Assembly (NCBI GenBank): GCA_021014945.1
Contig: MU266690.1
Span: 2,468-22,449, forward strand
Source of the DNA: Leucogyrophana mollusca
Lineage: Eukaryota > Basidiomycota > Agaricomycetes > Boletales
Length of the DNA: 19,982 nucleotides
Direction of reading: 5' to 3'
Part shown: positions 1 through 18,061 of the stretch, piece by piece
How the letters are laid out: each line of letters opens with the position of its first letter
Numbering within the stretch: the stretch's first letter is position 1
Position numbers and translations under genes: made by a program
Notes under the pieces: model-generated
The model's input: only the letters and a program-made list of their open reading frames with translations
What the model was told of the DNA's origin: nothing
The model's database searches: none

Positions 1-622
1 TACACAAACAGGTTGGAATCTAGCTCCTCGGGCTTGTCGGCGGCTAGCGACGATTCAGAGATTGAGTAGGATATGAAGAGATGGGAAAACTCACTGCGTT
101 TGTAATCATACACAAACAGGTTGGAGTCGAGCTCCTCGGGCTTATCAGCACCTAATGACGAGGGTTAAGAGAGGAGGGACATATGTAATGACATCGAGAC
201 CCACTCCGCTTGTAGTCGTAGACAAATAGATTGGAATCAAGCTCCTCAGGCTTGTCAGCACCTATCGGTGAGGGCTCAGGGAGGGATGGTCGAATGAAGA
301 AACACAAAAACCCACTGCGCTTGTAGTCGTAGACAAACAGGTTGGAGTCGAGCTCCTCCGGTTTGTCAGCACCTGGCGGACGCCGGACGTTGGTTAGTAG
401 GGGTATTGATATACATGAACACCGTGACTTACTCCGCTTGTAGTCATAAACGAAGAGGTTGGAGTCGAGCTCCTTGGGCTGATCAGCACCTGTCAGGGAG
501 TATTTAGACGATGAACAATATGCAGTACTATGGGACCTACGCTTTGCGGACCCCGTTGTGGGATATGCCGCAGCGAGAGCGACGAAGGACACGAGTGCGC
601 TGAAGACAAGTGTAAGCTGCAT
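1..622 (-). CDS. Kexin-processed repeat RiPP precursor 1 (dikaritin/UstA-like), 3' end outside window
   Basis: Secreted repeat precursor; probably the substrate of the neighbouring UstYa-type oxidases. Exon 1 (622-541) starts at an ATG and encodes a signal peptide (about residues 1-19) and a short linker ending in Lys. Exons 2-5 (489-433, 372-316, 261-205, 151-95) are each exactly 57 nt, phase 1 at both ends; exon 6 (43-1) runs off the window. Introns are 51, 60, 54, 53 and 51 nt with GTAGGT, GTAAGT, GTGGGT or GTGAGT donors and AG acceptors; the 60-nt intron contains a TACTAAC branch site. The first unit reads ADQPKELDSNLFVYDYKR, the next ones SADKPEELDSNLFVYDYKR, and exon 6 begins with Thr. 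KR ends each unit. An open frame continues through the first introns from a TTG further upstream, but splicing removes that sequence and the paralogue starts at the same ATG. Alternative: a repeated peptide pheromone; the paired UstYa genes favour a cyclic RiPP. Product is inferred. Confidence 0.82.
43..489 (-). repeat. Repeat-exon array 1: four complete 57-nt exons and the start of a fifth
   Basis: Four complete 57-nt coding units at 489-433, 372-316, 261-205 and 151-95, with a fifth beginning at 43. The exons are nearly identical in protein but differ at synonymous sites. The introns between them (60, 54, 53, 51 nt) share little beyond splice signals and a pyrimidine-rich 3' half. This indicates an older array in which selection maintains the peptide unit but not the intervening DNA. 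Confidence 0.85.
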
Positions 623-937: not shown

Positions 938-1794
938 TTCCTCTTGACTTCCTCGTCCGATTTGCGCAAATGAACTTCGCACTCCTCCGGCGATCGCGGC
1001 GCTCTGATCCAATCATAACTCCACCAGATGCACATTGAGATGCTGAGTCGTCAGAGTACTGGTAATCCCTATGAACGAGGGTGTTGGTCTCGACACCAGG
1101 AAGTCCGGATAACTCCGGCAAGTAGAACATATATCCCAGCAAATATCCCAGGACCTGGATAATCCCTCCATGGATGAGTGGTTTTCAACTCCGCTACCCA
1201 GAACTGCTGTAGTTCCAGACCGGGACAACGCACGATACACTCACTGCAATAATCGTTACCGCCTCATCCGATCTGATTTCTCGAGAAGTCCGAACGCTCC
1301 GCGACCTGGCCTTTCTCTCCAAATAGATCTGCAGAGTTGAAGGTTCCCAGCTGGCCAGGACACTATTTCGGGCTGAGGCTCCGGTTTATCTCAGTCAACT
1401 TCATGATATGAGGAGCAAACTGGTGCACGTTGCGCAATGCCCTTTCAGGCTGGTTCATCACGAGCGCTTACTTTAACTAAGGTGCCGTGAACTCGAATTC
1501 GCGACGCCCAGTGGCTCTGCATTACGGACGGGTATCCGAACGCGGTCAGAAGGCATGATTGGCAGGGCACAACTTGGCTCGATCCGCGGCCTGTCCGATA
1601 ACGCCTAGACACCGTGCTGACGATACTCTCCTTCCCTCACGGCCCGCTGCCTAACCGGGTGAGGCACTCGCAACTGCTTGAATAACTTATGTATCTTGAA
1701 GCTTGAAGTCTCAGGGGGCTTTCTTTGCATTGGATGTCCGCCTGATTTTATGTTCGGTACCCTCAACATCCGTAATTCACATCCTCACTAAAGT
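938..1794. other. Intergenic region between precursor 1 and UstYa-1 gene
   Basis: No coding region I can support. The right end (about 1640-1794) matches sequence before the cassette 2 homologue (about 11880-12051) and probably holds the promoter and 5' leader. A block at 1487-1524 matches 11599-11635 in opposite orientation. Short open frames here have no family features, splice structure or conservation. Confidence 0.5.
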
Positions 1795-2860
1795 ATGTTC
1801 AAAGAGCCCTCTCAGTACTCTCCCGTTGGTGGGGTCGACGACGACGAGGCGAAACTCTTTCACAGTGGTGCGGAAGGGTTTTCTGCCACACCCCCAAGTC
1901 GCCTTAAGCCCCGTTTCCTTCGTCTCCCATCGTGGTTGAGCCACGGTATCCTTGCGTGCACATCGTTGCTCTTCTTCACGCTATGGATGGAGACAGGTTC
2001 GACGTATGTGCACGAACATCTTCCTATATACTGTGAGTGGCGAGACAGCATTAGACGGCCGGCCCATAGATCTAACGCCTCCTGTCATAGCCCCGGCAAA
2101 CACTGCTGTGGAATCTCATGTTGTGAGGTTCAACGGAACCCTCGACTTCCCTTCCATTTATCGTGGCCATCCCTCCCCCGAGCTCGATGCCGCTTGGGCG
2201 AGAATATCTCACGATGGTGTGTTTTCCAACTTATTCCCGACGCACCCGATTAACGTGTGGACCGCCAGTGCGACCGACGCGTATGACACTTGACCAGATG
2301 CTCAGAGCGGGCGAGGTAAATTCCCCGTCAAAGGTCAAGTATCCGGACAGTTACGGCGGCGGTTTTATGGTATCCTTAGAATCCACTCATCAGCTACACT
2401 GCCTGGTAAGCCGCATCCATTGGAAACCCAGCTGTTTCTTACAAATCTACAGAACATGCTTCGCAAAGCATCCTGGCTTGATTACTACGAGAGTATTGAG
2501 CCTTCTTTCCAAGACACCCCTGAGGTAGTCCGCATGCATCTAGGTATATCTACGTCTCGCCTAACGCGCCTCCTGCTTATCACGATGTCCCCTCCAGATC
2601 ATTGCATCGAGATGATCAGGCAGAACGTCATGTGCAATGCCGATGTGACGATGATCACCTGGGACTGGGTGAAAGGACGCACCAGCCCTTACCCTAACTT
2701 CAATACTCGCCATCAGTGCAGAGACTTCGAGAAGATATTGGATTGGGCCACAACACATGCTGTCCATATCCCCAAATCTGAAGTCACACCCCTCGAAGAT
2801 ACAGTCAAATTACCTTTACCTTTCCACCACGGCACGAATCATCATGATCATGATGGATAG
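1795..2860 (+). CDS. UstYa/DUF3328-family oxidase, type 1 (cassette 1), 284 aa
   Basis: Membrane-anchored UstYa-family protein; relatives in ustiloxin-type pathways catalyse oxidative cyclisation of RiPP cores. Five exons: 1795-2032, 2091-2216, 2269-2405, 2453-2543, 2598-2860; introns 58, 52, 47 and 54 nt, all GT-AG. The exons sum to 855 nt in frame. Order: acidic cytosolic tail with DDDEAK (residues 15-20), one membrane helix at about 49-65, the family-typical YSPA after it (79-82), an NGT sequon at 94-96, first HxxHC motif HQLHC (162-166), second HxxHC motif HLDHC (196-200) followed by IEMIRQ, then RHQCRDFEKILDWA, and a His/Asp-rich tail. Length is normal for the family. The ATG fits the start of the conserved tail and is shared with the cassette 2 paralogue. 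It lies 1.17 kb from, and divergent to, precursor 1. Family assignment is firm; exact reaction is inferred. Confidence 0.9.
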
Positions 2861-3330
2861 CAGGTCTCCTATATAGTTTGTTTTTACCCATGTTTGTTAC
2901 ATACTGGACTGTAAACAACGACCACATTGTTCTAAACGCGCGGCGAGGGTGGATATCGAGTGAATGAACAGCCTGTGCAGGCACTTACAACAGGTCTGTG
3001 GGAGTCTGCGAGGCTCGTGGGTGCGAATGCAACTGAAGCCCCTTCACGACGGGTGCATAAATTTGAGGTCTAGGGTGGGTATGGGGTGGTGGCAGCATCG
3101 CGCTGGCACACGTAAGTACTTGTATGCGGGCCGCGGGTGGTCCTTTGACGAGTCGAGCTCAAGTGTAGGACACCAACAACTGAACAAAGAAGTCTACCCC
3201 GATACAACAATGCTCGAACTTCATTTAATGATGGTGTAGGGGGTATGATCCAATGAAATTGTTGACAACAAATGCGAGTAACCGTATAGTACTGAGGGAT
3301 AGTATTCGTGCCAGAGACTCGGAGACCTCC
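2861..3330. other. Convergent intergenic region between UstYa-1 and Cys-rich gene
   Basis: Holds the 3' ends of two convergent genes. No open frame shows recognisable features. Parts match the equivalent interval of cassette 2 (13118-13535), consistent with shared 3' UTR sequence. I see no further gene. Confidence 0.5.
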
Positions 3331-3706
3331 TTAACAATCCGTCACTGGGAGATCTTGGGGACAGTCGAGGGCACCGCCCATAGACCATCCATTGTACTGT
3401 AAATGTCATGTCCTCAATACGATAACAGCTTCATGTATCGAGCAGATTTACCATATTGTATTCACACTGAAATGGCTCTGTTGGAAAATATCTGTCGAGT
3501 ATTCCTGTGTAAGCAACCATACCCGCCAATTATGAGGAGCAGGCTCACATGCAAACCAGCGTGGTCCTCACGGAAGTCGTCTCCAGCAAGTCGTAAGTGG
3601 TGCCGTTTGCCTGTACTGAGGCAGGACATTCGACGGTACATTCCTGCGCATAGGAACCAGTAAAGTATGCGAGTAACGCGACGAAAACGACGTGAGAGTT
3701 GATCAT
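3331..3706 (-). CDS. Small secreted cysteine-rich protein, cassette 1 copy, 87 aa
   Basis: Family unknown. Three exons: 3706-3549 (158 nt), a 40-nt exon at 3491-3452, and 3396-3331; introns of 57 and 55 nt, both GT-AG, total 264 nt in frame. The ATG gives a signal peptide (about residues 1-20), then a mature chain with six cysteines at 23, 27, 52, 62, 78 and 87, an NGT sequon at 34-36 and a GGALDCP motif at 73-79. Even cysteine number and secretion suggest three disulphides. The model is supported by the paralogue at 13536-13899, which conserves exon lengths, cysteines and motif. It lies between the two oxidase genes on the opposite strand and shares an upstream palindrome with the precursors, so co-regulation is plausible. 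It could be an effector-like, protective or accessory protein; no function is assigned. Confidence 0.72.
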
Positions 3707-4034
3707 CGTTGTGAATGCGCGAGAACGGAGTTTCTCCCCTGGTTATTGCGACGGATTGCTGAGTGTTTCGAGTGGCACCCGAAGTATGAGGGCGTGCGGT
3801 ATACGATTTGGGTGATTAGTCCGAATTGACCGTGACATACGGAAAGGAAACCATGGGCCAATTATCTTGGAAGAACGGAATTGCCAGACCGCCCGAGTCC
3901 CCCAGGCAGCTTGTTTTCAACCGCATGGGTAGATGATTGGCCTAGGCTTCCCGCTCCAGCTTTGAGCTTACCTTGGAGTCCATTGGACGTTTAGCAAACG
4001 TAACAGCATTTGCCGAGGCTGCGTGTCGAGTAGC

Positions 4035-4048
4035 TCGCCATATGGTCA
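4035..4048 (-). promoter_or_regulatory. Shared E-box palindrome upstream of Cys-rich gene (cassette 1)
   Basis: TCGCCATATGGTCA on the plus strand, 329 bp upstream of the ATG at 3706. The flank CGTGTCGAGTAGC is also close to the flanks in the two precursor promoters, so conservation extends beyond the palindrome. Confidence 0.5.
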
Positions 4049-5086
4049 ATCACCCCAAAGATAACCAAGATATGATTGGTGAAGCTGAAGGCTAGATGGT
4101 CCCGTGGGGTAGTCGAGGATGACTGCACCATGACCTTGCTATTATTACCCTAGCTGGCCTGCCTACAGGATGTCTCCACAGTGAGAGTTTCCCAACATTA
4201 TGGGGTATGGGATACGTGAAGCACGTACCTTTTCATTGATAGGTTGATGGCCATGAAGCAGTTCTTTCGAGGTCGCATGGTCGAATCCTCATTACTCGCT
4301 TCCAGTCGATCCAGACCCGTCACCGCACACTCTATCGGAACACCGTGGCCGCCGTAGAGGCTTTTTGGCGACGCCTGATAACATCAGCCAATCAGATTTA
4401 CACGAGAAGACGAGTTCAAAGGCAATGATATTGATCGGCCATCTCGAAAAGAGAGTATCCTTCGAACGCCCCGTGAGAAGCCACGAACGTCGGAGTCTCC
4501 ATAAATATTGCTATGTTCCTGGTGAGCCACTTTGTAAAGCAGTCACATTATCAGTGGGCCAATCGGAACTCACATCAGCTCGTATCCCGCACCACAACCA
4601 GAACATCGCGCGAAGGTACCTTGGACCTAGAGTAAGAAGTGCACAGCACGTCCGTCTCAAAGCCGCACATATCGCGACCTGGCCGGTCTCTCCGCAGGCC
4701 TTCTTGAATCGAGACAGCTCAGATCGTTATTTCGGGGTGGGATTTCTTTGTTCTGTTTTCCGGGCAGGTTCATGGCGAATGAGCTGGAGCATGTTGCGTG
4801 CCCGGACTGGTTCAAGCATGGTGCCACTGACAGGGAAGTAGTAACTGTAAGTGTTCGAACTGGAGTCGGGGCTCATACTCAGGGCATTGGTTAATCCGCT
4901 AGTCCGCGGTCCGTCAGAGAAGACATCCTGTCAATACACCGCGTTGAAGTTGCCCCTGCTTCCTTTCCGAAGGCCCGCTTACAAACGTTTACAGGCTTGG
5001 TAAGTTTCCGATTCTTCTGCACATCTGATACCTAACTTCAACACGCCCCGTGAGGCCCCGTCCCAAAAGTACTCTTCCACCTCACC
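4049..5086. other. Intergenic region upstream of UstYa-2 (cassette 1)
   Basis: No gene I can support. Several patches align with 14182-15026, including a CCAATCGGAAC/CCAATTGGAAC box (about 4559/14583) and the pyrimidine-rich leader just before the oxidase ATG. A minus-strand GTACGT donor-like site near 4227 and a GTAAGC near 3968 hint at an old spliced transcript, but no open frame is shared by both copies. A TGGTAAGT site just after 4997 could be the donor of a 5' UTR intron. Confidence 0.4.
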
Positions 5087-6095
5087 ATGTTCCAAGCATC
5101 CTCTCAGTACTCTCCTATCGTTGGGGCTGACGACGACGAGGCGAAACTTCTTCATGATGGTGTAGAGGGATTCTCTGCCGAACCTCGTCCGAATTCCCGT
5201 TTCCATCGTCTGCTGCCTTGGTTGAGTCACGGCGTCTTAATATGCGCATCGATGGTCTTTTTCACTCTGTGGATGTTGGCCCCCTCGCCTGACGCCCTAG
5301 TTCTATACTGTAAGTAGATCAACATAGTGGCGTGTAGACCTTACTAACTCGTCACAGCACCAGCAAACGAAGCTATAGAATCCATCGGCATCATAAGGTT
5401 CAACGGCAGTCTCGGCGCTCCCTCCATATATCGTGGCAGCCCCTCCCCTGAGGTCGATGCTGCTTGGGAGAGAGTATCTCACGATTGTACGCAGTCTAGC
5501 TTATGCTCGCGATGGATGACTCACGCTGGGATTCTCTAGCGCGACCAACTCGCATGACACTTGAGCAGCTACTCAGAACCGGCGAGGAACCGCTTCCTTT
5601 CATGGCCAAGTTCCCGGATGAATACGGTGGAGGTTACATGGCAACGGTTGAGGTCATTCACCAACTTCACTGTGTAGTAAGTGTATCACCCTGGGTCTGA
5701 TCAATCCCGCTCACATACCTGCAGGATCTGCTGCGCAAAATCACGTGGGGGGAGCATTATAAGCACTCTGACCATTCCTTCCATGACACTCCCGAAGCAT
5801 TCCGCACGCACGTCGGTATGGATTTTCTCTGTCCGGCCCATCCGCCGCTTAGCGCGTTTCCTCAGACCACTGCATTGAAATGATCAGGCAGAATATCATG
5901 TGTCGCGGGGATGTGACCATGATAACTTACGACTGGATGGAGGGGTCTAAGGATCCATTCCCTAACTTCAACATCCAGCACCAGTGCCGAAATTTTGAGA
6001 AGGTCCTAGACTGGGTGGACGCCAATCGCGTTTTTGTGCCGAAATCCAAGGTTGTTCGCTTGGAGGATAGCGTTGACCTACCTTCCCCCCCTTGA
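5087..6095 (+). CDS. UstYa/DUF3328-family oxidase, type 2 (cassette 1), 269 aa
   Basis: Second UstYa-family oxidase of the cassette. Exons 5087-5309, 5358-5486, 5540-5676, 5725-5815, 5866-6095; introns 48, 53, 48 and 50 nt, GT-AG. Exons sum to 810 nt in frame, and intron phases (1,1,0,1) match type 1 exactly, so the two types arose by gene duplication. Features: acidic tail with DDDEAK (15-20), membrane helix about 47-64, YSPA (74-77), an NGS sequon in exon 2, HQLHC (158-162), HVDHC (192-196) with IEMIRQ, then QHQCRNFEKVLDWV. It ends in Pro-Pro and lacks the His/Asp-rich tail of type 1. Other dikaritin-type clusters also encode two UstYa homologues that act together; a paired role with the type 1 protein is inferred. 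Confidence 0.9.
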
Positions 6096-6231
6096 TCCCA
6101 CCCCGACGCAACCCCGTGGGGGAGTAAATTATGCACATGGGTCACGGCTCCTATATGGAATGGATATAACTATTCGTGAGCTATGGGAATGTATAATCCG
6201 ATATTGTTATGCAATGGCGTGTTTTACTGAC

Positions 6232-6390
6232 CTCTAGACTGCACTTAAACGCGAAGCCGTACAAAATCGACTCCATGTCCGTTGCCGCCTTTGGGCCGTC
6301 GGGGTTCTGCTCGGCAGGGTTTATGACCATGCACCAAACATCTGGCACTGACCCGTATGGCGTGTGCGCTACATAGAGGGTCCCATGCAG
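6232..6390 (-). pseudogene. Unrecognised protein-coding fragment, cassette 1 copy
   Basis: On the minus strand an open stretch reads LYVAHTPYGSVPDVWCMVI and later ESILYGFAF, ending near a possible GTCAGT donor. The cassette 2 copy (16176-16327) preserves the same words. Composition looks like real protein, but there is no start, no complete gene, and I cannot name the family. Probably a remnant carried along by the duplication. Confidence 0.45.
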
Positions 6391-6479
6391 CCGCTGCCAC
6401 ATCTATTTACAATCAGCTGTAACAGATATTCATTAGCAGCTATCGGAGCTAAGTACAGTGCCAACCATTGACAATTCTT

Positions 6480-6987
6480 CTTCATACACTCCCTCACTCC
6501 AAAGAGCCTCATCACAACCCTCTCCCTCACACCCGCCACGCCTACCTCCGCATTCGACTCCGAGCTCGACTACACCCGCTCCCCGCACGACGTCACCGCC
6601 GCCTCCGCTGCGGGATACGACACCTCAAGCTAGAGGGGCTTTTCTTCACTCGCCCACATCAGGTGAGTCTTCTTCATGTCGCCTTGTCGCATGTGCTGAC
6701 GAGGACGCAGGGAGAATCCGTCGCGCACTCCGCCTCACTGCCCGCCGATACGTCCCACTCCTCGCGCCCCGCCGACCTCGACCTCCTCCCTCGCCCACGC
6801 TTCTCCTCTCGCCAGCACCCCACGCTCTTCGTGGGCGTCAAGCCGCATCCCGCCCCAGCTCCCAGGTTACGATATGGCGAGAAGCCAAGAACTCCCGAGT
6901 GACGACGCGGAAGGCGCCACAAACGCACGACGTCCTGATAAGTAACGAAGTCAGCGCAGCGTCCGAACAACACGCACATCAACATTC
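6480..6987 (+). pseudogene. Decayed gene remnant, possibly Msb1/Mug8-like (cassette 1 copy)
   Basis: Aligns with 16430-17235 but lacks about 300 bp present there and carries frameshifts, so no continuous domain remains. The start matches codons for the DYTHSPHDVTAVLRW-type segment better preserved in the other copy. Later comes GTGAGT...GACGCAG, which looks like a retained intron, and a shared VLISNEVSA segment. Homology to the other copy ends abruptly at 6987. The Msb1/Mug8 name is from memory of the family and is tentative. Confidence 0.4.
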
Positions 6988-7122
6988 ACAGACCTCCCTT
7001 CGTTGCGACAACTCCCCATGTCAACGTAGTTTTCGGGACGGCAGCAAACCGAGTCGGACGTTCTGGGGACCATAAGGTAAGCTATGGATGTCTGAACGGG
7101 GGCCAATGGGCTTACCTTCGGC

Positions 7123-7675: not shown

Positions 7676-8090
7676 GAAGCTTGAAGTCTCAGGGGGTTTT
7701 CTTTGCATTGGGTGTCCGCCCGACATTATATTCAGTGCACTTATCCGTGATTGCCATACCCACCAAGGATTCCCCTGAACAACCCCCCACGATGGTGGGG
7801 TCAAAGTCGGCGAGGTGAAAGTCCGATGCAGCTGCCGCCACACCTCCGAATCGTCCCAAATCCCATCTCCTTCGTCTACAATTGTGATTGGACATTGAAC
7901 CACGGTTTTCTTATATACCCGTTACTTTTCCTCGATAGTGGGCGGGGAGACGTTCGAGGTGGTTTAGAGAATCGTGTTTGCCAGTGGGAGGACTGACGCT
8001 GAGCTCCCGCTTCACAGCCGCTCACATTCTAACAGTCTATATGGAGTTCGACGGCTCCGGCTATTTCGTCGGCGATTCCTTTGAAATGCG
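7676..8090 (+). pseudogene. Third, decayed copy of the type 1 UstYa gene (5' part)
   Basis: Starts with the leader found before both type 1 oxidases (GCTTGAAGTCTCAGGGGG, then CTTTGCATTGG-like words). It continues with DNA alignable to exon 1: GGTGGGGTC, CTGCCGCCACACC, CTCCTTCGTCT and TTGAACCACGG match the acidic tail, linker and start of the membrane helix. The ATG is lost and the frame is broken. Further on, after a CTTCACAG acceptor-like site at about 8017, a stretch reading YMEFDGSGYFVGDSF resembles exon 2 of UstYa proteins; this part is less certain. No HxxHC motifs remain. Confidence 0.65.
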
Positions 8091-8562: not shown

Positions 8563-9825
8563 TCAAACAAGCTCCTCGAGCTTAGCGCCTATCAGTGAGG
8601 GTTCAGCGAGCGAGGACCATGCGAAGAAATGCAAAAACTCACGGCGCACGTAGTCGTAACTCAACAAGTTAGAGTCGAGCTCCTCGGGTTTGTCAGCACC
8701 TATCGGCGAGGTTCAGCGGGCGGCGATCATGTGAAGAAATGGAAAAACCCACGGCGTACGTAGTCGTAACTCAACAAGTTAGAGTCGAGCTCCTCAGGCT
8801 TGTCGGCACCTATCGGCGGGAGTTCAGCGGGCGAAGATCATGTGCGAAGAAATGTCAAAACTCACGGCGCTCGTAGTCGTAACTCAACAAATTAGAGTCG
8901 AGCTCCTCGGGCTTGTCAGCGCCTACCGGCGAGGGTTCAGCAGGTGAGGATCATGCGCAGAAATGCAAAAACTCACGGCGCACGTAGTCGTAACTCAACA
9001 AGTTAGAGTCAAGCTCCTCGGGCTTGTCAGCGCCTACCGGCGAGGGTTCAGCGGGTGAGGATCATGCGAAGGTACGGAAAAACCCACGGCGCACGTAGTC
9101 GTAACTCAACAAATTGGAGTCAAGCTCCTCGGGTTTGTCAGCGCCTACCGGCGAGGGTTCAGCAGGCGGGATCATGCGAAGAAATGTAAAACTCACGGCG
9201 CACGTAGTCGTAACTCAACAAATTAGAGTCGAGCTCCTCGGGCTTGTCAGAACCTACAGGCGAGTGTTCAGCGGGCGAGGATCATGCGAAGAAATGCAAA
9301 AACTCACGGCGCACGTAGTCGTAACTCAACAAGTTAGAGTCGAGCTCCTCAGGCTTGTCAGTGCCTACCGGTGAGTATTCAGCAGGCGAGGATCATGCAA
9401 AGAAATGGAAAAACCCACGGCGCACGTAGTCGTAACTCAGCAAATTAGAGTCGAGCTCCTCGGGCTTGTCAGCGCCTACCGGTGAGGGTTCAGCGGGCGG
9501 GATCATGCGAAGAAATGTAAAACTCACGGCGCACGTAGTCGTAACTCAACAAGTTAGAGTCAAGCTCCTCGGGCTTGTCAGCGCCTACCAGCGAGGGTTC
9601 AGCGGGTGAGGATCATGCGAAGGTACGGAAAAACCCACGGCGCACGTAGTCGTAACTCAACAAGTTAGAGTCGAGCTCCTTGGGCTGATCAGCACCTGAC
9701 AGAGTATTTAGACAACGAATAATATGCAGTACTAAACACCTACGTTTTGTGGACCACGTTGTGGGATATGCCGTGGCGAGGACGACAAAGGACACGAGGG
9801 CATTGAAGATAAGTGTAAGCTGCAT
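8563..9825 (-). CDS. Kexin-processed repeat RiPP precursor 2 (dikaritin/UstA-like), complete, 12 exons, 225 aa
   Basis: Paralogue of precursor 1. Exon 1 (9825-9744, 82 nt) encodes the signal peptide and a linker ending in Lys; the split codon C|GT makes KR at the junction. Ten repeat exons of 57 nt follow: 9695-9639, 9584-9528, 9475-9419, 9364-9308, 9253-9197, 9144-9088, 9033-8977, 8922-8866, 8809-8753, 8699-8643. Exon 12 starts at 8588 and stops at TGA 8565-8563. Introns are 48-56 nt; total 678 nt in frame. The unit is ADKPEELDSNLLSYDYVRR; the first has QPK for KPE. The second Arg of each RR is split across the intron (C|GT or C|GC). Exon 9 has YDYERR; exons 5 and 6 begin with Thr and Ser. 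Predicted role: signal peptide removal, kexin cleavage at RR, then oxidative cyclisation through Tyr. Exon structure is seen directly; product chemistry is inferred. Confidence 0.87.
8643..9695 (-). repeat. Repeat-exon array 2: ten 57-nt exons in a homogeneous ~111-bp tandem repeat
   Basis: The DNA period is 109-113 bp: a 57-nt exon plus a 52-56 nt intron. Both parts are nearly identical across units, including GTGAGT/GTGGGT donors, a GCTGAAC branch-like word and TAG acceptors. This suggests recent unequal crossing-over or gene conversion. The terminal exon at 8588-8563 is an eleventh, truncated unit (AKLEELV then stop). Confidence 0.9.
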
Positions 9826-12051: not shown

Positions 12052-13117
12052 ATGTCCAAAGAACCCTCTCAGTACTCTCCCGTTGGCGAGGTCGACGACG
12101 ACGAGGCGAAACCCTTCCACAGTGGTGCGGAAGGGTTTCCTGCCACACCCCCAAGTCCCCTAAAGTCCCGTTTCCTCCGTCTGCCATCGTGGTTGAGCCA
12201 CGGTATCCTTGTATGCACATCGTTGCTCTTCTTCACGCTATGGATGGAGACAGGTTCGACGTATGTGCACGAACATCTTCCTATATACTGTGAGTGGCGA
12301 GACACCGTCAGGAGGCCGGTCCACGGATCTAACGTTCCCTGCCATAGCCCCGGCAAGCATTGTTGTGGAATCTCAAGTCGTGAGATTTAACGGAACCCTC
12401 GACTTCCCTTCCATTTATCGCGGTCATCCCTCCCCCGAGCTCGATGCTGCTTGGGCGAGGATATCTCACGATGGTGTGTTTTCCAGCTTATTCCCAGCGT
12501 ACTCGGTTAACATGGGGACCTCCAGTGCGACCGACGCGTATGACACTCGACCAGATGCTCAGAGCAGGCGAGGTAAATTCCCCGTCAAAGGTCAAGTATC
12601 CGGAAAAATACGGCGGGGGTTTTATGGCAACCTTAGAATCCACTCATCAGCTACACTGCCTGGTAAGCCGCATACACCGGAAACCCGGCTGTTTCTTACA
12701 CATTTGTAGAACCTGCTTCGCAAAGCATCCTGGCTTGAATACTATGAGAGTATTGAGCCTTCTTTTCAAAACACCCCCGAGGTGATCCGCATGCATCTAG
12801 GTATATCTACATCTCGCCTAGCGCGCCTCCTGCTCATCACGATGTCCCCTTCAGATCACTGCATCGAGATGATCAGGCACAACACCATGTGCAATGCCGA
12901 TGTGACGATGATCACCTGGGACTGGGTGAAAGGACGCACCAGCCCTTACCCTAACTTCAATACTCGTCATCAGTGCAGAAACTTCGAGAAGATATTGGAT
13001 TGGGCCACAACACATGCTGTTCATATCCCTAAATCTGAAGTTACACCCCTCGAAGATACAGTTGAATTACCTTTACCTTTCCACCACGCCACGAATCATC
13101 ATGATCACGACGGATAA
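12052..13117 (+). CDS. UstYa/DUF3328-family oxidase, type 1 (cassette 2), 284 aa
   Basis: Close paralogue of the oxidase at 1795-2860 with identical exon lengths. Exons 12052-12289, 12348-12473, 12526-12662, 12710-12800, 12855-13117; 855 nt in frame; introns 58, 52, 47 and 54 nt. It conserves the acidic DDDEAK tail, membrane helix (about 49-65), YSPA, NGT sequon, HQLHC (162-166), HLDHC (196-200), RHQCRNFEKILDWA and the His/Asp-rich tail. Differences are scattered substitutions, e.g. Arg-His in place of Arg-Gln after IEMI. Even intron sequences are largely conserved, so the duplication is fairly recent. It lies 2.2 kb from, and divergent to, precursor 2. Likely cyclises the precursor 2 core, but cross-activity on precursor 1 cannot be excluded. 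Confidence 0.9.
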
Positions 13118-13535: not shown

Positions 13536-13899
13536 TCAACAATTCACCATTGTGGGATCCTCAGGACAGTCGAGGGCACCGCCCATAGACCATCCATTGT
13601 GCTGCAAATGTCATTTTGCCAATGCGAGCAGACCTACCACATTGTATTCACACTGAAACGGTTCGTTTGGGAAGTAGCTGTCGAGAATTCCTACGTCAGC
13701 GACCTTACTCACCAAAGACGTTGAAATTTGAACAGACCCGCATGCAAACCAACGTGGTTTTCACGAAAGTCGTGTCCAGCAAGTCGTAAGTAGTGCCATT
13801 TGCCCGTACTGAAGCAGGACATTCGATGGTACATTCCTGCGAATAGGAACCGGGAAAGTATGCGAGCAACGCGAAGAAAAAGACACGAGAGTTGATCAT
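13536..13899 (-). CDS. Small secreted cysteine-rich protein, cassette 2 copy, 87 aa (GC splice donor)
   Basis: Paralogue of 3331-3706 with the same three-exon layout: 13899-13742 (158 nt), 13677-13638 (40 nt), 13601-13536 (66 nt). Signal peptide, NGT sequon, GGALDCP motif and the six cysteines are conserved. The first intron has GCGGGT at the donor position where the paralogue has GTGAGC, so the gene is intact only if a GC-AG intron is used. The next GT donor-like site downstream (about 13711) gives a wrong phase and an early stop. Either a tolerated GC donor or an early step of decay. Function unknown. Confidence 0.6.
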
Positions 13900-15026: not shown

Positions 15027-16039
15027 ATGTTCCAAGCGTCTCCTCAGTACTCTCCTATCGGTGGGGTTGACGACGACGAGGCGAAACTTCTTCATGATGG
15101 TGCAGAGGGATTCCCTGCCGCACCTCGTCCGAATTCCCGTTTCCTTCGTCTGCTGCCTTGGTTGAGTCACGGCGTCTTAATATGCGCATCGATGGTCTTT
15201 TTCACTCTGTGGATGTTGGCCCCCTCGCCTGACGCCCTAGTTTTATACTGTATGTGAATCAGCATAGTAGTCCGCGGACCTTACTCACTCGTCACAGCAC
15301 CAGCGAATGAAGCCATCGAATCTATTGGCATCATAAGGTTCAACGGCAGTCTCGGCGCTCCCTCCATATATCGCGGCAGCCCCTCCCCTGAGGTCGATGC
15401 TGCTTGGGAGAGAGTATCTCACGACTGTACGCCATCCATTTTGCTGTGGTGGTGGTCACGACTCACCCAGGGATTCTCTAGCGCGACCAACTCGCATGAC
15501 ACTTGAGCAGCTACTCAGAACCGGCGAGGAACCGCTTCCTTTCATGGCCAAGTATCCGGATGAATACGGCGGAGGTTACATAGCAACGGTCGAGGTTATT
15601 CACCAACTTCACTGTTTAGTAAGTGTGTTAACCTGGGTATGGTCAATCCCGCTCACATACTTGTAGAATATGCTTCGCAAAGTCACGTGGGGAGAGCATT
15701 ATAAGCACTCTGACCATTCCTTCGATGATACTCCTGAAGCATTCCGCACGCACGTCGGTATGTATTTTTTTCTGTCTGACCCTTCCGCTGCTTACGACCC
15801 CTTTTGTAGATCATTGCATCGAAATGATCAGGCAGAATATCATGTGTCGCGGCGACGTGACAATGATCACTTACGACTGGGTGAAGGGGTCCAAGGATCC
15901 GTTCCCTAATTTCAACGTCCGGCACCAGTGCCGCAATTTTGACAAGGTCTTAGACTGGGTCGACGCCCATCGCGTTTTTATCCCGAAATCCAAGTTCGTT
16001 CGGTTGGAGGATAGCGTGGACCTACCTTCCCCCCCTTGA
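15027..16039 (+). CDS. UstYa/DUF3328-family oxidase, type 2 (cassette 2), 269 aa
   Basis: Near-identical paralogue of the oxidase at 5087-6095. Exons 15027-15249, 15298-15426, 15482-15618, 15667-15757, 15810-16039; 810 nt in frame; introns 48, 55, 48 and 52 nt. An in-frame GTG 18 nt upstream could extend the frame, but the ATG at 15027 matches the paralogue. Features: DDDEAK tail, membrane helix about 47-64, YSPA, NGS sequon, HQLHC (158-162), HVDHC (192-196), RHQCRNFDKVLDWV, Pro-Pro end. Protein identity to the cassette 1 copy is visibly higher than that between the two precursor cores, so the enzymes changed less than their presumed substrates. Confidence 0.9.
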
Positions 16040-16429: not shown

Positions 16430-17235
16430 AAAGAGCCCCATCACAACCCTCTCCCCCACACCCACCGCGCCTCCCAAGGCATTCGACCCCGAGTTCGACT
16501 ACACCCACTCCCCGCACGACGTCACCGCTGTCCTCCGCTGGGGGGCACCCCACCGCAAGCTCGAGGGGCTCTCCTTCACCGCCTCCAATCACGGGGGCGA
16601 CCGGGCCCGGTACACCGCCTTCCACACTGCTGAACGCGCCGCGCCCTAACCCCCACTCACCTTCTCCACCTTCCTCCTCCTCGCCCTCTCCCCGCACACA
16701 CTGCCCTCTCCACCACCGCCCTTGACGTCGTCACTGCCCTTGCCGTAGAGGCCAACAGCATCTCCGGCAGCGAGCCCTCCAAGTTCATCGGCCTCTGGCG
16801 CCTCGCGGCCGGTGCCTCCTGCGCCGCCCCGAATGACGACAGGGCGTCATTCTACCAGCACTGGGAGCACGCCGGCCGTGTGCTCGAGCATCCTTCCTCG
16901 CCCGTATCAGGTGAGTCTTCTTTATGTCGGCTCGTCGCGTGTGCTGATGAGGACGCAGGGAGAATCCGCCGCGCACCCCGCCCTACTGTTTGCCGATACG
17001 TCCCACTCCTCGCGGCCCGCCGACCTCGATCTCCTCCCTTGCCCACGCTTCTCCTCTCGCCAGCACCTCGCGCTCTTCGTGCACATCAAGTCGCACACCG
17101 TCCCAAGTCCCAGGTCACGGTGTGGCGAGAAGCCAACAACTCCCAAGTGACGACGCGGAAGGCGGCACAAAAGCACGGCGTCCTGATAAGTAACGAAGTC
17201 AGCGCAACGTCCGAACAACACGCGCATCAACATTC
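16430..17235 (+). pseudogene. Decayed gene remnant, possibly Msb1/Mug8-like (cassette 2 copy)
   Basis: Three segments in different frames look like one former protein. The first (from about 16477) contains FDYTHSPHDVTAVLRWG and FTASN, ending at a TAA near 16648. The second (about 16708-16905) contains DVVTALAVEANSISGSEPSK, FIGLWRLAAG and FYQHWEHAGRVLEH. The third follows a GTGAGT...GACGCAG intron-like gap. The order of words resembles the fungal Msb1/Mug8 domain (PHDV-x-VLRW, then SGS-x-L-SK, then F-x-W-x-AGRALEH), which I recall but cannot check. Frameshifts mark it as a pseudogene. Confidence 0.45.
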
Positions 17236-18061
17236 TACAGCAGCCATTACAATCACGGGTGCTATGAGATCGACAGCTACGGACGTACTAGAAGCTCACG
17301 CTAACATCCTCCCTATCCCTCTACTCATGCAGAAAATATGTCACCGCGCGCTAGTCAGGCTCGCCGCGCACCCCCAGTCCCACCCGCTCCACAAACACCT
17401 GCGCTGGATTGCGAAACACGACGTAAAGTCGCACAGATCTTCACTGCATGAGCTGATACACTCCTTCCACATTGATCCAGACACGATCGAAACCATAAAC
17501 CCAACACGTCGTTCCCCCGCATCATGCACACCGTACAGAACACGCATCGCACTGACAAGAGACGCGGCGGTGGCAGAGCAGGCACAATCGACCGAGGTGA
17601 TACAGGTATTCTCGGACGGATCGGGTTATGAAGGAAAAGTAGGGGCAGCGGCTGTCCTGATGAGAGAAGGCCAAAGGCCACGGGTTCTACGCTACCACCT
17701 GGGCGATCTGAAGGATCACACCGTATATGAAGCGGAGGTAGTCGGCTTAACCCTAGCCGCCCAGCTGCTCGCCACCGAACCAAACCTGACATTCCCAGCA
17801 TCGATCTACGTAGACAACCAAGCAGCTATTAGATCCGGTGAGACGATCACAGCGAAGGCGGGACATCACTTAGTAGATCATTTCCACAGGCAGGCGTGGG
17901 AGCTCAAACGGGCCCACGACGACTACGCTCTTACGGTTAGATGGATATCGGGACACGACGGTGTCGAGGGAAACGAGAGAGCAGATAGAGAGGCGAAGAA
18001 AGCAGCGGGAGGGAAAGAGCAGAACAGCCGAAGAACGCTATTACCGACATCACATGAATAG
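17236..18061 (+). mobile_element. 5'-truncated non-LTR retrotransposon (LINE), RNase H region
   Basis: The open frame has a linker typical of the region after reverse transcriptase (GAMRSTATDVLEAHANILP, CHRALVRLAAHP) and a complete RNase H domain. Catalytic positions are present: Asp in FSDGSG, Glu in YEAEVVGL, Asp in IYVDNQAA and Asp in GNERADREAKK, with the WISGHDG motif before it. The reverse transcriptase is missing, as is usual for 5'-truncated LINE copies. The left boundary is where homology between the cassettes ends. The frame runs on from the upstream remnant, but that fusion is accidental. The element's 3' end, tail and target duplication were not resolved. Confidence 0.75.

What the first reader, a model, noticed from the sequence alone, without database searches (positions are those of the whole stretch)
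8563..9825. A complete kexin-processed repeat precursor with ten near-identical Tyr-containing units beside UstYa oxidases
Splicing by eye gives a 225-aa secreted protein: signal peptide, then ten 19-residue units ADKPEELDSNLLSYDYVRR separated by RR. Precursors of this form plus UstYa-family oxidases define dikaritin-type cyclic RiPPs, known mostly from ascomycetes (ustiloxin, phomopsin, asperipin, epichloecyclin). Neither the unit nor its YDY core matches a core I know, so this may be a new peptide family in a basidiomycete.
Basis: partly seen in the sequence, partly recalled or inferred. Interest (0 to 1): 0.93.

Follow-up and report, generated by a model that had tools for sequence, protein, structure and literature searches.

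The report
Hidden, intron-split mushroom peptide precursors
A wood-rotting bolete relative carries a secreted protein made of ten almost identical short peptide units, each in its own exon, next to enzymes of the kind that cross-link such peptides, and similar intron-split genes appear elsewhere in its genome.

Summary
On the minus strand, 9825..8563 splices by GT-AG introns into 12 exons encoding 225 aa: signal peptide, ten 19-aa units (consensus ADKPEELDSNLLSYDYVRR), short tail. Differences between units are mostly synonymous (pN/pS 0.09), so this is a coding array under selection. The organism is Leucogyrophana mollusca (Boletales): spliced UstA2 equals a deposited protein on a contig of the same length.

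The window holds two tandem cassettes (precursor, UstYa-A, small secreted Cys protein, UstYa-B); a third lies on contig C417. Cores differ (NLLSYDYV, NLFVYDYK, NLFGYDYE/V) while the leader part stays fixed. Relatives occur in Suillus.

The larger result: the architecture recurs. The same kind of exon 1 (signal peptide ending at a basic site split by an intron) appears 15 times in 224 kb, mostly UstYa flanks, against 0 in a reversed control. One relative, spliced by hand, is an open 25-exon gene with 8-nt exons.

Best reading: basidiomycete dikaritin-type RiPP precursors hidden by exon-per-unit genes. Splicing in vivo, cross-linking and product are unproven. New variant of a known kind.

The parts
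8563..9825 (-). Precursor P2: 12 exons, 225 aa, signal peptide + ten 19-aa units + tail AKLEELV
   Evidence: splice model; selection on units
9744..9825 (-). P2 exon 1 (82 nt): MQLTLIFNALVSFVVLATAYPTTWSTK, ends within the Arg codon of the first KR site
8643..9695 (-). P2 unit array: ten 57-nt exons and nine introns of 52-56 nt; each intron interrupts the second Arg codon of RR (C|GT)
1..622 (-). Precursor P1, cut by the left window edge: signal peptide + units ADKPEELDSNLFVYDYKRS (four complete units and part of a fifth visible)
1795..2860 (+). UstYa-A1, 5 exons, 284 aa, HQLHC and HLDHC motifs
3331..3706 (-). SSP1, small secreted Cys-rich protein, about 87 aa after two introns (model tentative)
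5087..6095 (+). UstYa-B1, 5 exons, 269 aa, HQLHC and HVDHC motifs
12052..13117 (+). UstYa-A2, 5 exons, 284 aa; identical to deposited protein P0001 (BV22DRAFT_876521)
13536..13899 (-). SSP2, counterpart of SSP1; first intron has no clear GT donor at the SSP1 position
15027..16039 (+). UstYa-B2, 5 exons, 269 aa; identical to deposited protein P0022 (BV22DRAFT_1041177)

Best explanation
P2 is the precursor gene of a small ribosomal peptide family in Leucogyrophana mollusca. Steps: (1) the transcript loses eleven short introns, each of which splits an Arg codon of a dibasic (Kex2) site; (2) the protein enters the secretory pathway; (3) a Kex2-type protease cuts after RR and a Kex1-type carboxypeptidase trims the basic residues, releasing about ten copies of ADKPEELDSNLLSYDYV; (4) two membrane-anchored UstYa oxidases (A2, B2), probably recognising the conserved ADKPEELDSNL part, oxidise the YDY end, most likely forming one or two Tyr side-chain cross-links; (5) a secreted peptide is released. 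Shown by sequence: the spliced open frame, coding selection on units, the cassette, intact double HXXHC motifs, and a proprotein-convertase P-domain gene in the genome. Inferred: splicing in vivo, processing, cross-linking, product and role. The cassette was duplicated; the leader stayed fixed while core positions changed, so each copy probably makes a different variant. It belongs to a larger family of exon-split precursors paired with UstYa genes in this genome.
For: 225-aa open frame over 12 exons with uniform GT-AG introns. Purifying selection on units: pN/pS 0.09 in P2; pS 0.72 and pN 0.023 in four P1 units. UstYa domain in A1, A2, B1, B2 at E 7e-58 to 2e-60; two HXXHC motifs in each of A1, A2, A3, B1, B2; these positions are invariant or nearly so in an alignment of 41 sequences chosen from the 120 listed. 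The same cassette occurs three times. Between P1 and P2 the ten leader codons differ at 0.80 of 24.0 nonsynonymous and 3.50 of 6.0 synonymous sites per pair, while codons 12, 13 and 17 differ at 5.07 of 7.2 nonsynonymous sites. Deposited relatives: P0121 is P3 with its first two introns spliced as I had spliced them; Suillus cothurnatus P0122 has EELDSDLFVYAYKK and EELDSDLYFYNYKK. One P-domain gene in the genome. Exon-1 architecture recurs, 15 hits against 0 in the control.
Against: No RNA evidence and no mass spectrum. UstYa genes are common in this genome (about 27 by my grouping), so neighbourhood alone is weak. No tyrosinase, methyltransferase or peptidase domain was seen among 8 window ORFs scanned. 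P3 has lost its first dibasic site (KS), and its deposited model reads into the third intron instead of splicing it. Each unit carries a ten-residue conserved stretch with no second dibasic site, so the mature N-terminus is unknown. P2 itself was not found in the protein database, so no annotation supports its exons directly. In the related C391 precursor 8 of 11 unit ends are TR or AR followed by DR, not a classical Kex2 site. The UstA2 structure model is poor (pLDDT 61.8) and was not used.
Confidence: 0.75

Rival explanations
1. Linear KEP peptide: the gene is expressed and Kex2-processed, but the peptide stays linear (signal, defence or antimicrobial peptide) and the neighbouring UstYa proteins act on another substrate.
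For: 1577 of 1680 basidiomycete KEPs in a survey have no DUF3328 neighbour (103 have; PMC7329392 section 7), and KEP peptides other than dikaritins are described as linear or minimally modified (PMC9769878 passages). UstYa genes are numerous here.
Against: Precursor and UstYa pair occur together in three copies, Tyr-Asp-Tyr is kept while its neighbours change, and divergent precursor-UstYa pairs recur at other loci.
Confidence: 0.17
2. Decaying gene array: the repeats are a remnant that is no longer spliced or expressed.
For: P3 lost a dibasic site; the SSP2 intron lacks a clear donor; an RNase H ORF, probably from a transposon, lies nearby; the two short C41 genes have a further KR-donor motif after their stop.
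Against: Purifying selection on ten P2 units and four P1 units, no frameshift or internal stop in P2, and GT-AG sites at all eleven introns.
Confidence: 0.05
3. A secreted repeat protein with another role (cell-wall or effector protein) that is not cut into peptides.
For: Regular secreted repeats also occur in structural proteins (recalled); no processing was tested; the related C391 precursor has mostly non-classical unit ends.
Against: RR ends all ten P2 units and KR ends the signal-peptide segment; the cassette partners are UstYa enzymes; the C41-72k and C86 precursors, with entirely different units, keep KR at exon ends.
Confidence: 0.03

Closest known systems
Dikaritins (ustiloxin, phomopsin, asperipin-2a, victorin; epichloecyclins close by)
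   Same: Signal peptide, repeated units ending in dibasic Kex2 sites, Tyr in the core, UstYa/DUF3328 genes with double HXXHC beside the precursor.
   Different: Basidiomycete; one unit per exon with the intron inside the Kex2-site Arg codon; core LxxYDY is unlike YVIP, YVIG, YAIG (named in PMC7329392 passages); no tyrosinase seen; a small Cys protein is part of the cassette; product unknown.
KEX2-processed repeat proteins (KEPs) of Agaricomycetes
   Same: Repeat architecture, secretion signal, dibasic sites.
   Different: KEP peptides other than dikaritins are described as linear, minimally modified (PMC9769878, passages seen); these have UstYa partners and fragmented genes.
Suillus EELDS proteins P0122 and P0123 (deposited as hypothetical proteins)
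   Same: Similar signal-peptide segment and EELDS[ND]L leader followed by a variable end, Tyr-containing in three of the four units.
   Different: Cores differ (DLFVYAYKK, DLYFYNYKK, NLFGHLTDG, NLVGYAGYFDEPDKR); fewer units; gene structures and neighbours not seen here.
Cycloamanides (MSDIN) and borosins of basidiomycetes
   Same: Ribosomal peptide families of mushrooms.
   Different: Cytoplasmic processing by S9 oligopeptidases (PMC9769878 passage); no Kex2 repeats or UstYa (recalled).

Membership tests
KEX2-processed repeat protein (KEP) | N-terminal signal peptide | tested here: met
   Exon 1 MQLTLIFNALVSFVVLATAYPTTWSTK, hydrophobic core by inspection and a simple composition filter; no dedicated predictor was run
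KEX2-processed repeat protein (KEP) | Repeats flanked by KR/RR sites | tested here: met
   Ten units each ending RR, first preceded by KR
Dikaritin | UstYa/DUF3328 gene close to the precursor | tested here: met
   Four UstYa genes in the window, PF11807 E 7e-58 to 2e-60
Dikaritin | Double HXXHC motif in the UstYa protein | tested here: met
   Both motifs in A1, A2, A3, B1, B2
Dikaritin | Repeated core with Tyr or another cross-linkable residue | tested here: met
   YDY in all ten units
Dikaritin | Cyclic product cross-linked through side chains | not testable with these tools
   Needs mass spectrometry and NMR
Dikaritin | Cleavage by Kex2 in vivo | not testable with these tools
   One P-domain gene in the genome; cleavage itself not shown
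Ustiloxin/phomopsin subgroup | Tyrosinase in the cluster | tested here: inconclusive
   None among 8 window ORFs scanned, but exons were not scanned exhaustively and the contig ends with the window
Ustiloxin/phomopsin subgroup | Core Tyr-X-Ile | tested here: not met
   Core is LLSYDYV / LFVYDYK / LFGYDY; a Tyr-X-Ile core does occur in the related C391 precursor (GYDITGG)

The most novel reading that the evidence does not exclude
Boletales carry a large, mostly unannotated superfamily of RiPP precursors whose genes are built from repeat-unit exons, with introns placed inside the Kex2 cleavage codon and sometimes 8-nt exons (25 exons for 212 aa in one case). The exon-intron build makes core units exchangeable and countable cassettes (unit exons of P2 are frame-neutral), so unit number and core sequence can change by exon duplication, skipping or recombination while UstYa enzymes stay constant. 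It would also explain why protein-based surveys find few UstYa-linked precursors in Basidiomycota: gene callers do not recover them.
Probability: 0.5. Interest if true: 0.86.

Novelty: new variant of a known kind. Interest (0 to 1): 0.76.

Why it matters
A published survey found DUF3328 genes beside only 6.1% of basidiomycete KEPs, against 30.1% in Ascomycota, and offered two explanations: that the cyclisation-factor motif differs between the phyla, or that cyclisation of KEPs hardly occurs in Basidiomycota (PMC7329392, section 7 read). This locus offers a testable third: the precursors exist but are split into tiny exons that annotation breaks or drops. P2 itself was not found in a 5.8-billion-protein database at the sensitivity used, and the deposited model of P3 is cut short inside its third intron. 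A DNA-level search for the exon-1 signature could reveal a hidden set of mushroom peptides, each already paired with its candidate enzyme. The three cassettes also give a natural series of enzyme pairs facing different cores.

Tried and rejected
Protein search with P2 alone found nothing at E up to 10 among 7994 scored candidates; adding P1 and P3 as an alignment found three relatives among 7990. The Pfam matches of P2 to DUF7608, OSR1_C and DUF5996 have no stretch passing on its own and were taken as repeat artefacts. A genome-wide pattern for DSNL..YDY gave 17 places, 16 in P1, P2 and P3; the one elsewhere (C155) showed no repeats around it and the control also gave one, so it was dropped. 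The pattern AARCGTRAG-N90-120-AARCGTRAG gave 0 hits against 4 in the control. The hand models were chosen by eye, and two introns of the C41-72k model use AAG acceptors. A first B3 model failed; only exon matches were shown, so B3 is not claimed intact. The UstA2 structure model was poor, so no fold search was made; the best PDB sequence matches had E 0.36 and 0.44. A GC-AG first intron for SSP2 was considered and left open. No earlier report of unit-per-exon fungal precursors was seen in the search listings or in the passages read (papers of subscription journals are mostly not held).

Full report
Observation. The minus strand from 9825 to 8563 splices into 12 exons (82, ten of 57, 26 nt) with eleven GT-AG introns of 48-56 nt and encodes 225 aa: signal peptide, KR, ten 19-aa units, tail AKLEELV. 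All eleven introns split an Arg codon of a dibasic site: intron 1 that of KR, the others the second Arg of RR (CGCC|GT). DNA copies of the unit are 109-113 nt apart. Among the ten units, introns differ more than exons (mean pairwise difference 0.138 against 0.074) and exon differences are mainly synonymous (pS 0.254, pN 0.023). Placing the 14 distinct substitutions at random gives 4.4 synonymous on average against 9 observed (P = 0.0096). Four complete units of P1 give pS 0.72 and pN 0.023. The array is therefore a coding, selected sequence. The first intron of P2 is open in frame, and an automatic splicer read through it; the deposited model P0121 of the third copy splices the equivalent one, so 12 exons is likely but not proven.

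Source. UstA2 as spliced here is identical over 284 aa to P0001 (Leucogyrophana mollusca, BV22DRAFT_876521), whose contig length, 22449, equals that of the window's contig. UstB2 is identical to P0022, on a contig of the same length. Both splice models were made before the search.

Cassette. The window holds P1(-) UstA1(+) SSP1(-) UstB1(+) and then P2(-) UstA2(+) SSP2(-) UstB2(+). A third set, P3, A3, S3 and exons matching B, lies on contig C417. The deposited proteins P0002 (A3 with one intron unspliced) and P0121 (P3) are listed on a contig of 17846, longer than the 13852 held here. The four window UstYa proteins match PF11807 at E 7e-58 to 2e-60, and A1, A2, A3, B1 and B2 each have two HXXHC motifs. 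A1 and A3 agree at 279 of 284 residues, A1 and A2 at 260 of 284, A2 and A3 at 257 of 284, B1 and B2 at 247 of 269. SSP is a secreted Cys-rich protein of about 87 aa with no Pfam family above cut-off, found only in the three cassettes (6 matches at 3 places). Its gene model is tentative; SSP2 lacks a clear donor where SSP1 and SSP3 have one.

Mosaic. C417:5587-10461 is 94.8% identical to window 1584-6475 (first cassette), whereas its precursor end is 83% identical to P2 and 73% to P1. Nearly identical enzymes thus stand beside precursors with different cores. Whether C417 is a third cassette or an allele cannot be told here.

Core variation. P1, P2 and P3 share ADKPEELDSNL and YDY and differ in between and after (FV..K, LS..V, FG..E/V). 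Between P1 and P2 the ten leader codons differ at 0.80 of 24.0 nonsynonymous and 3.50 of 6.0 synonymous sites per pair of units; codons 12, 13 and 17 at 5.07 of 7.2 and 0.98 of 1.8. This fits a fixed recognition part and a changing core; the numbers are small and no formal test of diversifying selection was run.

Relatives elsewhere. Search with the three-sequence alignment scored 7990 candidates and found three: P0121, which is P3 with the first two introns removed as in my earlier model but reading on into the third; P0122 (Suillus cothurnatus) with EELDSDLFVYAYKK and EELDSDLYFYNYKK; and P0123 (Suillus ampliporus, partial) with EELDSNLFGHLTDG and EELDSNLVGYAGYFDEPDKR. P0122 and the UstYa P0070 of the same species are listed with the same longest contig length (1001314), so they may lie on one contig; their distance is unknown. 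UstA homologues at roughly 50-70% identity are frequent in Suillus, and one occurs in Hygrophoropsis (68%).

The family in this genome. A PF11807 search gives 35 matches in the 32.3-Mb assembly, which I group into about 27 genes on 17 contigs. Beside UstYa genes I found further precursors with unrelated units, spliced by hand. C41 near 72 kb: nine exons, 125 aa, units such as EPLVAGTAGITLYSADISEESTIEKR. C391: 25 exons including nine of 8 nt, 212 aa, twelve copies of KGYDITGGD; C270 holds a close copy by eye, not spliced. C86: two genes with cores such as NYLYLATED, TLVYYVGED and SVYYPGGGMWDEKR, the second modelled in part. C41: two short single-core genes ending in HPEGYYYLIKAE and HPAGTYYVIKAD. 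In the C391 gene 8 of 11 unit ends are TR or AR followed by DR rather than a classical KR/RR site.

Shared exon 1. A regular expression for ATG-CAN, a hydrophobic stretch and a charged residue followed by C|GT found 15 places in 223,625 bases (window plus L013-L035, with some overlap), 11 of 79 nt and 4 of 82 nt, and 0 in the reversed sequence. The scanned loci are UstYa flanks, so this does not itself show association. Two whole-genome searches bear on that. A pattern taken from C86 (KR donors 165-195 nt apart) gave 10 hits: 5 on C86, 4 on C41 in three loci close to UstYa genes, and 1 on C11 without one; the reversed control gave 1. Counting loci outside C86, 3 of 4 lie near a UstYa gene, against 0.5% of the genome within 3 kb (P about 5e-7; two of the three are paralogues, so this overstates independence). 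The exon-1 end pattern gave 13 hits, 12 on UstYa contigs and 1 on C58, with 0 in the control; 11 of the 13 had been seen before and had shaped the pattern, and only C270:2690 and C58 were new. A looser pattern gave 3 hits, one of them (C47) already seen and two (C56, C282) not followed up. With P3, which lacks the site and was missed by the expression, the count of exon-1 candidates is 18 (15 + P3 + two). No exon 1 was found in the read parts of C289, C193 and C140. In 10 of the 18 candidates the precursor and a nearby UstYa are divergently oriented (C364 twice, C417, C41 three times, C47, C86, C270, C391; positions); the other eight do not show such a simple pair in what was read.

Mechanism. 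Kex2 cleavage after dibasic sites and UstYa-dependent side-chain cross-linking are the accepted steps for dikaritins (PMC7329392 section 7 and passages; PMC9233826 passages). A P-domain gene, the mark of Kex2-type proteases (recalled), is present once. That the same chemistry happens on YDY is inference. Asperipin-2a, with two linkages from internal Tyr side chains, is the nearest chemical precedent (PMC9233826 passage). The role is unknown; defence or communication is a guess.

What is known. DUF3328-linked KEPs in Basidiomycota have been counted (103 of 1680), and Pleurotus UstYa-like genes have been discussed as probably involved in dikaritin production (PMC8893723 passages). A lichen study reports two UstYa cluster clans in which no conserved repeated precursor was identified (PMC12048977 passages). 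The main texts of two earlier KEP surveys do not use the words intron or exon (PMC7329392; PMC6339444). The unit-per-exon gene form and the exon-1 family were not seen in the searches named under Tried and rejected.

Verdict.

Noticed in passing
L031:3746 to about 5820 (C391) and L026:2901 down to about 1000, minus strand (C270): Precursor with twelve KGYDITGGD units in 25 exons (C391), alternating 37-nt and 8-nt exons in the main; contains a Tyr-X-Ile core like ustiloxin. Most unit ends are TRDR or ARDR rather than KR. The C270 copy was not spliced.
   Followed up: partly
L034:1274 and L034:5054 (C86), L020:7518 minus (C41), L023:730, L025:497 (C41): Five further exon-split precursors with different cores beside UstYa genes.
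   Followed up: partly
L023:6027, L026:6584, L027:1004, L029:3312, L030:97, L032:6989: Six more exon-1 candidates whose downstream exons look very short (YDIAKEE, YFIAKDE visible in L027); not modelled in full.
   Followed up: no
C58:81604 and C11:248569 (positions only): Exon-1-end and KR-donor pattern hits on contigs without a UstYa match.
   Followed up: no
window 3331-3706 and 13536-13899, C417:8346-8718: Small secreted Cys-rich protein found only in the three cassettes; function unknown.
   Followed up: partly
window 7676-7766 and downstream: Short stretch resembling the upstream part of UstA1 (about 80% over 94 nt), a likely relict between the cassettes.
   Followed up: no
window 16880-18061 (+): ORF with an RNase H domain (PF00075); 16893-17240 is 88.5% like 6644-6991; probably transposon remnants around the cassettes.
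   Followed up: no
L013:4217-4456 (-): Exon of a fatty-acid/sterol hydroxylase-like gene (PF04116) beside the third cassette, probably outside the cluster.
   Followed up: no
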